Part shown: piece after piece, positions 6,378 to 17,048 of the stretch
Layout of the letters: every line of letters begins with the position of its first letter
Numbering within the stretch: position 1 is the stretch's first letter
DNA from: Xenorhabdus cabanillasii
GTDB lineage: Bacteria; Pseudomonadota; Gammaproteobacteria; Enterobacterales; Enterobacteriaceae
Assembly: GCF_003386665.1 (NCBI RefSeq)
Contig: NZ_QTUB01000001.1
Span: 124,001-188,000, forward strand
Length of the DNA: 64,000 bases
Reading direction: 5' to 3'
Program-made: the position numbers and the translations under genes
The notes under the pieces: model-generated
The model's database searches: none
What the model saw: only the letters and a program-made list of their open reading frames with translations
Told to the model about the DNA's origin: nothing

Positions 6378-7344
6378 TTATAAAAATGCATTACTTTTAT
6401 AGTTATAAAATTCCGACAATGTCATACCATGGACCAGTGGTTTCAAGAATCCAAACAATCCTTCTAAATCTTGGTAAAGCAAATCAATTTTTTTCTTCCG
6501 TCTGAAAAGTCGGACTTCCTCCCGGCATAAACTCTGATGAATGCAACATGAATTCAACATAGTCATTACCAGATGCCAAAGTTTGCCGGACGACAGCTTT
6601 CATCTGTTCCAGATTACCCCCTTTTGGGCGCAACCAATTAACTGATGGAGAGCGCTTTTTCCCTCGCACATGATCATATTTTTGTTTAATAAAATTCATG
6701 ATCGGAGAATGCTTATACTGAATACTCATTGGTACTTGTAATAATGAAGAGTCGCCTTCTTTAGCAATATCCTGCAAATCCATAAAATAAGCATGAGATG
6801 GAAAACGGCTATAATCTGTTCCGCCATTTCCATTCGGATCTCCCTTGGTAAAACGCCAGTTAACCTTCGGAGTAACAGAGCAATCTACCTGATAACCATA
6901 TTCGGCCAATAATTGAGCATAATATTCGTTAAATGCCCAGCGACCAGCCCGGTGACTCAGCATTTTGGTCTGAAGTTTTTCTTCAAGAAGATTTGTTATC
7001 AAATCAATTTTTGCTTTTATCTGATTTTTAGGATATTCAATCAGATAAGGCTTATAGTGCATATCATCGTCAGTCAGAGGAACAATAGGTGGATTGTTCC
7101 AGGCATGCAAATGCATACCGATTTCACCTGTGTTTCTGGCAATTACATCCTTGGCAAATTCGATATAACTATCATCCATCGCCATTTCATAGTTTGTTAG
7201 CCAGACGGGTTTGAATCCAAAACGCTCACATAGGCTTTGAAACCTGGGCAGATATTGCGTATTTTCGGTAGAAATTTTATCGCTATTTTGCCAAAGGTTA
7301 TCACCTTCAGTATCAATTGTGATGATGAATGCTGGTTTGGTCAT
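6378..7344 (-). pseudogene. WabN-like LPS core deacetylase, frameshifted in a 7-A run
   Basis: Polysaccharide deacetylase (NodB superfamily) resembling Klebsiella WabN, which deacetylates a core N-acetylglucosamine. Candidate metal ligands are Asp11 (ITIDTEGDN), His78/His80 (GMHLHAW) and His131 (SHRAGRW). The frame opened at 7344 stops at 6484 after FQTEEKN, giving 286 residues. Removing one of the seven T at 6488-6494 (A on the coding strand) lets it continue as EEKIDLLYQDLEGLFG...MTLSEFYNYK to a stop at 6378, for 321 residues. That tail is a normal deacetylase C-terminus. The catalytic part is intact either way. The frameshift may be a mutation, phase variation, slippage-corrected expression or a sequencing error. 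Confidence 0.8.
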
Positions 7345-7380
7345 GAAAAAGATACCTTATTACAGAAACATGAAACATTA

Positions 7381-8482
7381 TTACTCAGTGAAAGTATACA
7401 AGGATAAAAAGACATCTATCTTTTCTAAGATAACCTCCAGCGGTATTTCACTGATTTTACTATTGATATTTTCCTGTACTAATTGGACAGCATTTTTATT
7501 TCCCGGCCCCCACACATCATTGTTGATAAAATTGCCATGTTTATCATTACCATATAGTGCGATTGTATTTTTCTCATACGCCGCCGCAACATGCACAATT
7601 GAGGTATCTGGTGAAATAATCAAATCAGCATGTTTTATTATTTCTACAGCACCGAGAAAATTGCAAAATGGGTTGAAAATACAGTTATCCAAATACGAAA
7701 TCATACTTATTTTTTCGGGGCTACCAATCAATACAATATTGACTGACTGATATGAATAACCAATATGAGATGTTATTCCAATCAATTGTTCTTTAGAAAG
7801 ATCTCTCTTTTCATCAGCAGCAAAGGGATTAATAACAACAGTTACCTTTCCTGGCAAATGAGAGTAAAAGTCACGCACTTTATCCTTGATACCATCAGGA
7901 ACACAGATGTCATACTGCATATTATAATTATAAATCTCCATATGATTCATTAAAGATTTATATCTTTCTGTAATATGTAAATTATAACCTAAGTAGGTTA
8001 TGTTTTTGTTATAAATATTTATTTTATCTTTATTAAACCCAATTACATGATTAGAATTAATCAGTCTTATAAACAAAAGATAAATAACAGGAATTTGATC
8101 ACCCATATCAATAATGAGATCATACTTTTCCTGTTTCAATTTCAATCCTAACTTAAGTATATCTGTATTTTTATCAGGATAGAAATATACCTTATCTATA
8201 TGTGGATTATTTTCTATCACACAATAATTAGTTCGACCTGATAATACATGTAATTCATATCCTTGCTGAGACAATGCTTTTAAAACCGGTGTGGATACAA
8301 TCATATCACCAATTTTATTATCATCTCGTAAAAAAAGAACCTTTTTGACACCTGTAAGAGAAAATTCTCTTTTATCCCATTTATCAATAAAAATTTTACT
8401 CATATTAAATCTTATTTTTTTTGAAAAAATAATTTTTTCTTCTATTTAATTCACGTAATTTTTTAAATTTTTTTTCAGTCAT
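7381..8482 (-). CDS. GT9 heptosyltransferase-like protein (WaaQ position), N-terminus out of frame in an 8-A run
   Basis: GT9 family transferase. The uninterrupted frame is 7381-8403 (340 residues), starting MSKIFIDKWDKREF. It has LFLRDDNKIGDMIVSTPVLKAL near the N-terminus and the nucleotide-heptose site ISPDTSIVHVAAAYEKNTIALYG near residue 280. The ATG at 8403 has no convincing ribosome site. Upstream, 8482-8405 encodes MTEKKFKKLRELNRRKNYFF and ends at TAA. Dropping one A from the 8-A run (T at 8415-8422) fuses it in frame through KKIRFNMSKIFIDK into a 366-residue protein with the basic N-terminus common in this family. The order deacetylase-GT9-GT4-GT4-waaA corresponds to wabN-waaQ-wabH-wabG of Klebsiella-type clusters. 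The gene is notably AT-rich. Confidence 0.7.
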
Positions 8483-8513
8483 TGGAATATCTCAAATAAT
8501 AACATCAAAAATT

Positions 8514-9618
8514 TTACTGCTTTATCAAGGAAAAATATTCACCAAGTACAACATCCAAATCAAATTTCTTATACATATTTTCCGTAATGAAAGGAGGATT
8601 CTGATAAACCAAACGCATTTTTTTCTGCTAATGATTCTGAAGTAAGTTCTGATTTATATTGTTCTAATTCTCCCACCATAATCTCACTGATCCCACCAGG
8701 GCAATTTGTGCTGACAACTGGAGTCTGGCAGATCAAAGCCTCAATTAATACATTGCCTAAACCTTCGCTATCTGAACTCAAAACAACAGCTTTAGCTTCA
8801 CGTATCACGGGCAGAGGATTTGTTAAAAACCCAATTAGTTTAACTCTGGATTGTAAACCAAGTTCCACAATTTTCTGTTTAATTTTATCAGTCATTTTTT
8901 TATCGCCATGACCTGCAATTAATAAGTTGCAAGGAATAGCAGCCATGGCAAATGCTTCTAACAAACGATCATGGCGTTTCACCTCGTGAAATCGTCCAAG
9001 ATGGAGAATATAATCTTGACCTGAATATGGATTGTTTTCCAATGAATTCAGTTTAATTTCAGTTATGTTGAATGGGTTGTAAATAGTGACCATTCTTCTG
9101 GCAGTAACAGATAGATTTTTCTGTAAATCCAAGCCAACTGCATCAGAAACACAAATTAAATTACGATCCTGATAAACACGCTGAATTTTATGTTTCTTAA
9201 GCCAACGTGCCAGACCTGTTTTATTTTCGAGGTAAGATTTAGAAAATACACCATGAATACAAAACCATACATTCAAATTTTCTAATACCTTAGATTTTGC
9301 AACTATACGATCGGTTTTGTGTAAATTGGATATTACCAGCGCAGGAATTCCTTTTTGCCGCAAGATTTTTTCCAAAACCTTATCCATTGATTTCGCTCTA
9401 CGAAAAATTTCAGTCTGTCTTCTAAAAGGACCTGCATATTTATCAGCATCAATAACCAAGTCAACATGTTCAGGAATCGAATATTCGCATTTATCAGACA
9501 ATGATAGTAATGTGATATCAAAACCTTTCTGTTGCAATCCACGGCACAGGCGTACTACGACATTTTCAGCACCACCACCCGGCAATCCATCAATGATAAA
9601 CAGGATATGCCCTTTCAT
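8514..9618 (-). pseudogene. WabH-like GT4 glycosyltransferase, frameshifted in a 7-A run
   Basis: GT-B glycosyltransferase of family 4, resembling the core N-acetylglucosamine transferase WabH. The N-terminal motif is DGLPGGGAENVVVRLCRGL. The donor-site region reads YILHLGRFHEVKRHDRLLEAFA and SSDSEGLGNVLIEALICQTPVVSTNCPGG (EX7E motif). As sequenced the frame ends at 8569 after 349 residues with an unusual tail. Removing one base of the seven T at 8618-8624 gives AEKMRLVYQNPPFITENMYKKF...SLIKQ ending at 8514, for 367 residues, a typical GT4 C-terminus. The start overlaps the end of the upstream WabG-like gene by 4 bases (ATGA). The GT4 core is complete, so a shortened product might still fold. 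Confidence 0.75.
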
Positions 9619-15866: not shown

Positions 15867-17048
15867 TCATTTATCAAAACATATTTTTTCTATCACTTGC
15901 ATAATCAACTTTGCCCGTTGATCCCAATTAAAATGTTCCGCGACTAACCGCTGAGAGTGTTCTGCTTTAGCCATTATTTCAGCCGGATTATCAATCAGTA
16001 ACTGAATCTGTTGTGCGAAACTTGTCGCATTTTCACTGTCTGCAAAGCTGACTGCGTTTTCATCAACCGCATCACGAATAGAAGGAAGATCAGAAATAAC
16101 AACCGGTTTTCCCATCGCCATATATTCAAAAAGTTTAAGAGGGGAAGTATAACGGCTGCCAATACTGGTTTTTGTCAATGGCAGGATGCAGATATCATTA
16201 TCGGCAATAACTTGGAAACGGTTTTTAGGATGGACAAACCCCAGAAAATTAACCCGATCGCTTACGCCAATTTGTTGAGCTACAGATTTGAGTTGTTCAA
16301 TCTGCGTACTATTTCCACCTGCAATGTTCAATACAACATTATTAAGGTGACACATAGACTTCATAGCAGTAGGTACGCCTTTCCAGCGATGCAAACTGCC
16401 TAGATACAATACCTGTGTTGTTTCTCCTTTCTGGTATTGCTTGCCTGAAGATGCCATCTTTGTTGCTTCAACTGCTAATAAATCAACACCGTCAGGTGCA
16501 ACGATAATCGGTGTTTTAACCCTATATTCAGTACAAATATCGTCACGTAGTAATGAAGTCAGAACAAAAACAGTCCGGGCACGATGATAAACCTGTTGTT
16601 CAATTTTTCTGAGCCTGGAATATTTGCGCTTATTAGCTCGTTTATTCAAGTCATGGGACTCTTTAAAAGATTGAGAAAAAATTTCATGACTTTCAAAAAA
16701 GTGCGGAATATCAGGATGCTTATGCAAGAGATAATTTGCTATTTTAATATTACGAGTAAAAATGGCATCGACCTGGTGTTCCTGCAACCAACGGGAAACC
16801 TGAAAATAAAATAATTTTTGTGTATTGATGGGAAAATACCATTTACGGCGCATATCACGTAAAGCGATCAATTCAACAGATGGTGGTAACTTTCTACCAA
16901 GGATTTCCTCAACACCATTTTGACCCGCAGGTGTTATCAGACAGACTTGGTGACCCTGACGGGCAAAAGCATCCACGTTCTGCAAAATTTGCAGTGAAGC
17001 AACACGAAAGTCAGGTACAGGATAAGGATCAATATAAGCAATCTTCAT
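15867..17048 (-). CDS. GT4 family glycosyltransferase
   Basis: GT-B glycosyltransferase of 393 residues. The N-terminus is MKIAYIDPYPVPDFRVASLQ. A central basic segment includes SHDLNKRANKRKYSRLRKIEQQVYHRARTVFV. The C-terminal donor site reads VLYLGSLHRWKGVPTAMKSM and SRYTSPLKLFEYMAMGKPVVISDLPS. It is the last gene of the block and its start overlaps the preceding GT4 by 4 bases (17045-17048). It probably builds outer core or an LPS-linked glycan; the sugar is unknown. Confidence 0.85.
   Translation of the reverse strand: MKIAYIDPYPVPDFRVASLQILQNVDAFARQGHQVCLITPAGQNGVEEILGRKLPPSVELIALRDMRRKWYFPINTQKLFYFQVSRWLQEHQVDAIFTRNIKIANYLLHKHPDIPHFFESHEIFSQSFKESHDLNKRANKRKYSRLRKIEQQVYHRARTVFVLTSLLRDDICTEYRVKTPIIVAPDGVDLLAVEATKMASSGKQYQKGETTQVLYLGSLHRWKGVPTAMKSMCHLNNVVLNIAGGNSTQIEQLKSVAQQIGVSDRVNFLGFVHPKNRFQVIADNDICILPLTKTSIGSRYTSPLKLFEYMAMGKPVVISDLPSIRDAVDENAVSFADSENATSFAQQIQLLIDNPAEIMAKAEHSQRLVAEHFNWDQRAKLIMQVIEKICFDK

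What the first reader, a model, noticed from the sequence alone, without database searches (positions are those of the whole stretch)
6378..9618. Three consecutive LPS-core genes each one base out of frame at a poly-A run
Deacetylase, GT9 and WabH-like GT4 genes each contain exactly one base too many. In each, removing a single A from a coding-strand run of 7, 8 and 7 A residues restores a full-length family-typical protein. All other long genes of the window are in frame, apart from the decayed Panacea partner. The shared direction and motif suggest more than random decay: phase-variable tracts that switch the outer core, RNA-polymerase slippage that makes some correct product (known for poly-A tracts in AT-rich endosymbionts), or a systematic homopolymer overcall in the data. 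If real, the core glycan would be heterogeneous within the population.
Basis: partly seen in the sequence, partly recalled or inferred. Interest (0 to 1): 0.75.

Follow-up and report, generated by a model that had tools for sequence, protein, structure and literature searches.

The report
Probable base-calling errors in LPS genes
Three neighbouring sugar-coat genes of a Xenorhabdus bacterium read out of frame by one base each, but the same fault also splits the gene for DNA gyrase, which a cell cannot do without, so these are most likely errors in the assembled sequence.

Summary
Three adjacent minus-strand genes (window 6378-9618) each change frame once, at coding-strand A runs of 7, 8 and 7; close Xenorhabdus relatives carry each gene in one frame.

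Decisive control: gyrB, present once, is split between two frames at an A run in the same genome, but is whole in 29 of 29 other Xenorhabdus genomes.

Against X. indica (635 kb aligned), isolated single-base indels deep inside genes are mostly extra bases (20 against 5), while noncoding ones are near balance (158 against 132; Fisher 0.019). Twelve further genes carry such breaks after my curation. None of the three LPS genes shows a second lesion.

Phase variation and polymerase slippage have little support. Recent true gene loss is not excluded: three neighbours in a row is unusual (about 1% in the sample), and adhE in this genome has a real deletion. Raw reads would settle it.

The parts
8569..9618 (-). 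GT4-type glycosyltransferase gene, frame before the break (349 aa, altered C end)
8618..8624 (-). run of 7 A on the coding strand where the GT4 gene changes frame
8517..8624 (-). out-of-frame remnant of the GT4 C end (X. indica residues 332-367)
8417..8482 (-). out-of-frame N-terminal stretch of the GT9 gene (X. indica residues 1-22)
8415..8422 (-). run of 8 A on the coding strand where the GT9 gene changes frame
7381..8403 (-). GT9-type glycosyltransferase gene, main frame with its own ATG (340 aa)
6488..6494 (-). run of 7 A on the coding strand where the third gene changes frame
6381..6506 (-). out-of-frame remnant of the third gene's C end (X. indica residues 280-321)

Best explanation
The three frame switches are most likely artefacts: single extra bases left in the consensus of this closed Xenorhabdus assembly, mostly at A/T runs, with the AT-rich LPS core locus badly hit. 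The living strain then has three ordinary full-length LPS core genes and nothing switches. Shown: a break of the same kind in single-copy gyrB, further such breaks elsewhere in the genome, and a lean towards extra bases inside genes. Inferred: that the LPS tracts share the gyrB cause, and that poor local read quality explains the cluster.
For: gyrB, single copy, split at residues 1-124 / 123-639 of the family model but whole in 29 of 29 other Xenorhabdus genomes. Isolated single-base indels at least 18 residues inside X. indica ORFs: 20 extra, 5 missing; noncoding 158 and 132 (Fisher 0.019). 18 of 447 X. indica ORFs show a collinear frame switch on this genome against 7 of 450 in the reverse test. 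No second stop or gap in the trio, as in gyrB. High density of A/T runs in the X. indica GT9 gene: 7.3 runs of 6 or more per kb against a median of 1.4. In one MinION study insertion errors often followed A or T (PMC12007338, passages).
Against: Three neighbours in a row is unusual: about 1% for any three in the sample. Noncoding homopolymers show no clear excess of extra bases (A/T runs: 17 longer by one, 16 shorter by one). The extra-base lean is modest (p 0.04 without the trio). adhE in this genome has a real deletion, so true decay also occurs. The same MinION study found deletions prominent after long homopolymers. Raw reads and platform could not be seen.
Confidence: 0.77

Rival explanations
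1. Recent true loss: the strain has really acquired one extra base in each of three genes of the same pathway, so its outer core is truncated; once one gene was lost the others were free to decay.
For: The three hits are neighbours in one pathway, a clustering that random error explains poorly. A/T runs are natural slippage sites, and noncoding indels between the two genomes are common. A real pseudogene, adhE, exists in the genome.
Against: No second lesion in any of the three. No clear relaxed selection: most amino-acid changes in the third gene's remnant are shared with genome G008, and C ends are variable anyway. mutS and mutL are open. The assembly carries the same kind of break in gyrB.
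Confidence: 0.15
2. Phase variation: the A runs change length often and switch the outer core on and off within the population.
For: Homopolymer tracts in surface-glycan genes are a known arrangement for phase variation (recalled).
Against: The tracts are short, and only 3 A runs of ten or more exist in the genome. The third gene's tract is interrupted in X. bovienii and X. kozodoii. No relative examined shows an out-of-frame state. mutS and mutL are open.
Confidence: 0.04
3. Recoding: the DNA is as printed, but RNA polymerase or the ribosome slips at the A runs and makes some full-length product.
For: Known at a longer tract: 11 A in Citrobacter rodentium tssM1 (PMC4256274, abstract seen). 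The frames on both sides of each break stay open and well kept. E. coli RNA polymerase made low-level insertions at an A7 run by mRNA sequencing (0.39%, PMC6260861, passage).
Against: In reporter tests E. coli RNA polymerase showed no detectable slippage below eight A, and in mRNA insertions outnumbered deletions threefold (PMC6260861, passages), whereas an extra base needs a net loss. gyrB would have to be rescued at a run of 6 A. No relative examined keeps the out-of-frame state.
Confidence: 0.03

Closest known systems
Gene-fragmenting indel errors in long-read assemblies (Kastor study, PMC12007338, passages seen)
   Same: Intact genes split by single-base indels, many at homopolymers; insertion errors often after A or T in one MinION data set
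   Different: That study found deletions prominent after long homopolymers; here extra bases dominate. The platform used for this genome is unknown
Transcriptional slippage rescue, e.g. Citrobacter rodentium tssM1 (PMC4256274, abstract seen)
   Same: An A run at a frame break with a sensible downstream frame
   Different: Run of 11 A there, 7-8 here; there slippage adds A, here a net loss would be needed
Phase-variable homopolymer tracts in surface-glycan genes (recalled, no call)
   Same: Homopolymer run inside a surface-glycan gene
   Different: No length variants seen, short runs, tracts not kept as homopolymers in all relatives
Core LPS gene sets of Proteus and Xenorhabdus (a GT9 homologue is labelled WamC in P. 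mirabilis, some GT4 homologues WalW in Xenorhabdus; source labels)
   Same: Same glycosyltransferase families; X. indica, X. bovienii and X. kozodoii hold the three genes in the same order
   Different: The frame switches were seen only in the assembly of this genome

Membership tests
Assembly overcall | Same kind of lesion in an essential single-copy gene that is whole in relatives | tested here: met
   gyrB split here, whole in 29 of 29 other Xenorhabdus genomes; that gyrB is essential is established knowledge
Assembly overcall | One-sided direction of single-base indels inside genes | tested here: met
   20 extra, 5 missing against 158 and 132 noncoding, p 0.019; modest, p 0.04 without the trio
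Assembly overcall | Raw reads disagree with the consensus | not testable with these tools
   no reads held
Pseudogene by recent decay | Further lesions or relaxed selection | tested here: inconclusive
   no second stop or gap; no clear relaxation; a very recent loss would look the same
Phase-variable contingency locus | Tract kept as a homopolymer among relatives | tested here: not met
   third gene's run interrupted in X. bovienii and X. kozodoii; GT9 run only 5 A in X. bovienii
Phase-variable contingency locus | Length variants among cells or isolates of the strain | not testable with these tools
   no second isolate or reads of this strain held
Transcriptional slippage rescue | Run long enough for bacterial RNA polymerase to slip (8 A or more in E. 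coli reporter tests) | tested here: inconclusive
   7, 8 and 7 A: met only at GT9; threshold from PMC6260861, passages
Transcriptional slippage rescue | mRNA of mixed run lengths | not testable with these tools
   no RNA data

The most novel reading that the evidence does not exclude
The printed DNA is right throughout, gyrB included, and this Xenorhabdus lives with a dozen or more frame-broken genes because its transcription or translation slips efficiently even at A runs of 6 to 8, so that LPS core enzymes and other proteins are made as mixtures.
Probability: 0.02. Interest if true: 0.8.

Novelty: not a real feature. Interest (0 to 1): 0.12.

Why it matters
Taken at face value the assembly would suggest an LPS-core switch or an outer-core loss that probably does not exist. 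The gyrB check is a quick general test: before calling phase variation or decay from A-run frameshifts in a single assembly, look for the same lesion in essential single-copy genes. If independent reads do confirm the LPS tracts, the locus becomes a clean case of recent outer-core loss in an insect-nematode symbiont.

Tried and rejected
Mutator state: mutS and mutL are open; mutH, dam and uvrD were not tested. Coding-strand bias: in the first 441 kb, 12 of 900 coding A runs of 5 or more (X. indica length) changed and 0 of 421 coding T runs; in the larger set T insertions also break genes, so I dropped a strand-specific cause. Relaxed selection in the remnants: 11 amino-acid-changing against 5 silent codons in the three remnants, 40 against 102 in the kept parts; explained by naturally variable C ends and, for the third gene, by changes shared with genome G008. 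Promoter and terminator scan of the locus: not above shuffles. Naming the strain: not achieved; X. budapestensis XH-4 (PMC13208338, passages) has a different genome size. By the GT4 protein X. indica (97%) and X. budapestensis (98%) are near.

Rows dropped from the 25 isolated indels inside X. indica ORFs before the curated counts of 16 extra and 3 missing: extra-base rows at 154027 (pfkA) and 1888707 (rmuC), because the break lies before the family match starts; 1904782 (no NCBIfam match at the cut-off used); 3353417 (109-aa ORF, not identified). Missing-base rows at 3262448 (ada, break before the family match) and 41869 (gene with several further differences). One of the 3 missing-base rows kept lies at the edge of the adhE deletion. 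Breaks near the starts of galU, fnr, rnm and dsbB were not counted, being ambiguous.

Full report
WHAT IS THERE. The window lies at C1:124001-188000 of a one-contig genome of 4,335,622 bases. Homologues place it in Xenorhabdus; X. indica is the closest relative whose DNA I compared (about 94% identity over the locus). The region is an LPS core locus: GT9-type and GT4-type glycosyltransferases, a Kdo transferase, an O-antigen-ligase-type protein and a Mig-14-type protein (Pfam; further gene names are recalled). The three genes of the finding lie on the minus strand.

THE OBSERVATION. Each gene changes frame once at a coding-strand A run of 7, 8 and 7. Intact proteins of three relatives mapped onto the window break into two frames there. 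X. indica, X. bovienii and X. kozodoii carry each gene in one frame. In one search GT4 and GT9 were each covered by one frame in six of six Xenorhabdus loci (L006-L011). The third gene is in one frame in 28 of the 29 other Xenorhabdus genomes searched; the one left, 82% complete, gave no match. GT9 is the mildest case: the displaced stretch is about 22 residues and the remaining 340-aa frame keeps the Pfam match.

THE CONTROL. I compared 635 kb of this genome with X. indica (93.5% identity, 70 blocks). One-base breaks occur elsewhere too. The telling one is gyrB: the only gyrB of the genome is cut into two frames at an A run, while 29 of 29 other Xenorhabdus genomes held have it in one frame above the family cut-off. 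GyrB is essential (established knowledge), and the other match in the genome is at the score that the second, ParE-like copy reaches in the other genomes. A run of six A is shorter than the eight at which E. coli RNA polymerase slippage became detectable in reporter tests (PMC6260861, passages). The printed gyrB is therefore very probably wrong, and the assembly contains an error of the kind seen in the LPS genes.

EXTENT. Of 447 X. indica ORFs assessed on this genome 18 show a collinear frame switch; in the reverse test 7 of 450 do. Isolated single-base indels at least 18 residues inside X. indica ORFs number 20 extra and 5 missing; noncoding single-base indels are 158 and 132 (Fisher p 0.019). 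After dropping six rows (listed under Tried and rejected) the counts are 16 and 3 (p 0.015), and 13 and 3 without the LPS trio (p 0.04). The 13 lie in 12 genes: gyrB, adhE, pulA and a YafC-type regulator; ubiB, smdB, a CobW-type GTPase (yjiA, name recalled), loiP and a 1089-aa NRPS-type gene; fliD and putP; and an unidentified 3642-aa ORF with two. Of 13 broken genes whose pieces were checked, 9 (the trio, gyrB, ubiB, smdB, yjiA, yafC and the 1089-aa gene) show no further stop or gap; pulA, putP, fliD and loiP show some. adhE also lacks about its first 225 codons, so it is a real pseudogene: not every break is an error.

AGAINST THIS READING. Homopolymers in noncoding DNA show no clear excess of extra bases (A/T runs: 17 longer by one, 16 shorter by one). 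Three neighbouring genes hit is unusual: about 1% for any three in the sample with 16 events. The lean towards extra bases is modest. The sequencing platform is unknown.

WHY NOT THE LIVELIER READINGS. Phase variation: the tracts are short, the third gene's tract is interrupted in two relatives, and only three A runs of ten or more exist in the genome. Slippage: reporter tests put the threshold at eight A for E. coli, although mRNA sequencing in the same paper found 0.39% insertions at an A7 run; insertions outnumbered deletions threefold, and here a net loss is needed. True recent loss is possible, because the cluster is unusual and the genes serve one pathway; but there is no second lesion, no clear relaxed selection, and mutS and mutL are open. 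The cluster may reflect poor local coverage: the X. indica GT9 gene is 27% G+C with about five times the median density of A/T runs of 6 or more. That is inference.

IF THE DNA IS RIGHT. GT9 would be least harmed: its displaced leader frame ends one base before an ATG that X. indica lacks (sequence), so translation could restart there. GT4 and the third gene would lose about 34-37 C-terminal residues.

VERDICT. As a biological feature the finding is most likely not real. Raw reads decide.

Noticed in passing
window 8403-8482: The displaced GT9 leader frame ends one base before an ATG that X. indica lacks; if the break were real, translation could restart there.
   Followed up: partly
window 15867-17048: Another glycosyltransferase-like gene differs from X. 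indica by one base in an A run near its 3' end (6 against 7), which changes only the last residues (393 against 391 aa).
   Followed up: no
G000 C1:53268-53272: gyrB of the window's genome is split between two frames, a warning for anyone using this assembly for typing.
   Followed up: yes
G000 C1 around 3137945-3139901: adhE lacks about its first 225 codons and has a further frame switch: a real pseudogene.
   Followed up: partly
L001 and L002 (X. indica contigs 11 and 12): The two 21-kb loci are identical and gyrB also occurs in both contigs: probably a duplicated stretch in that draft assembly.
   Followed up: no
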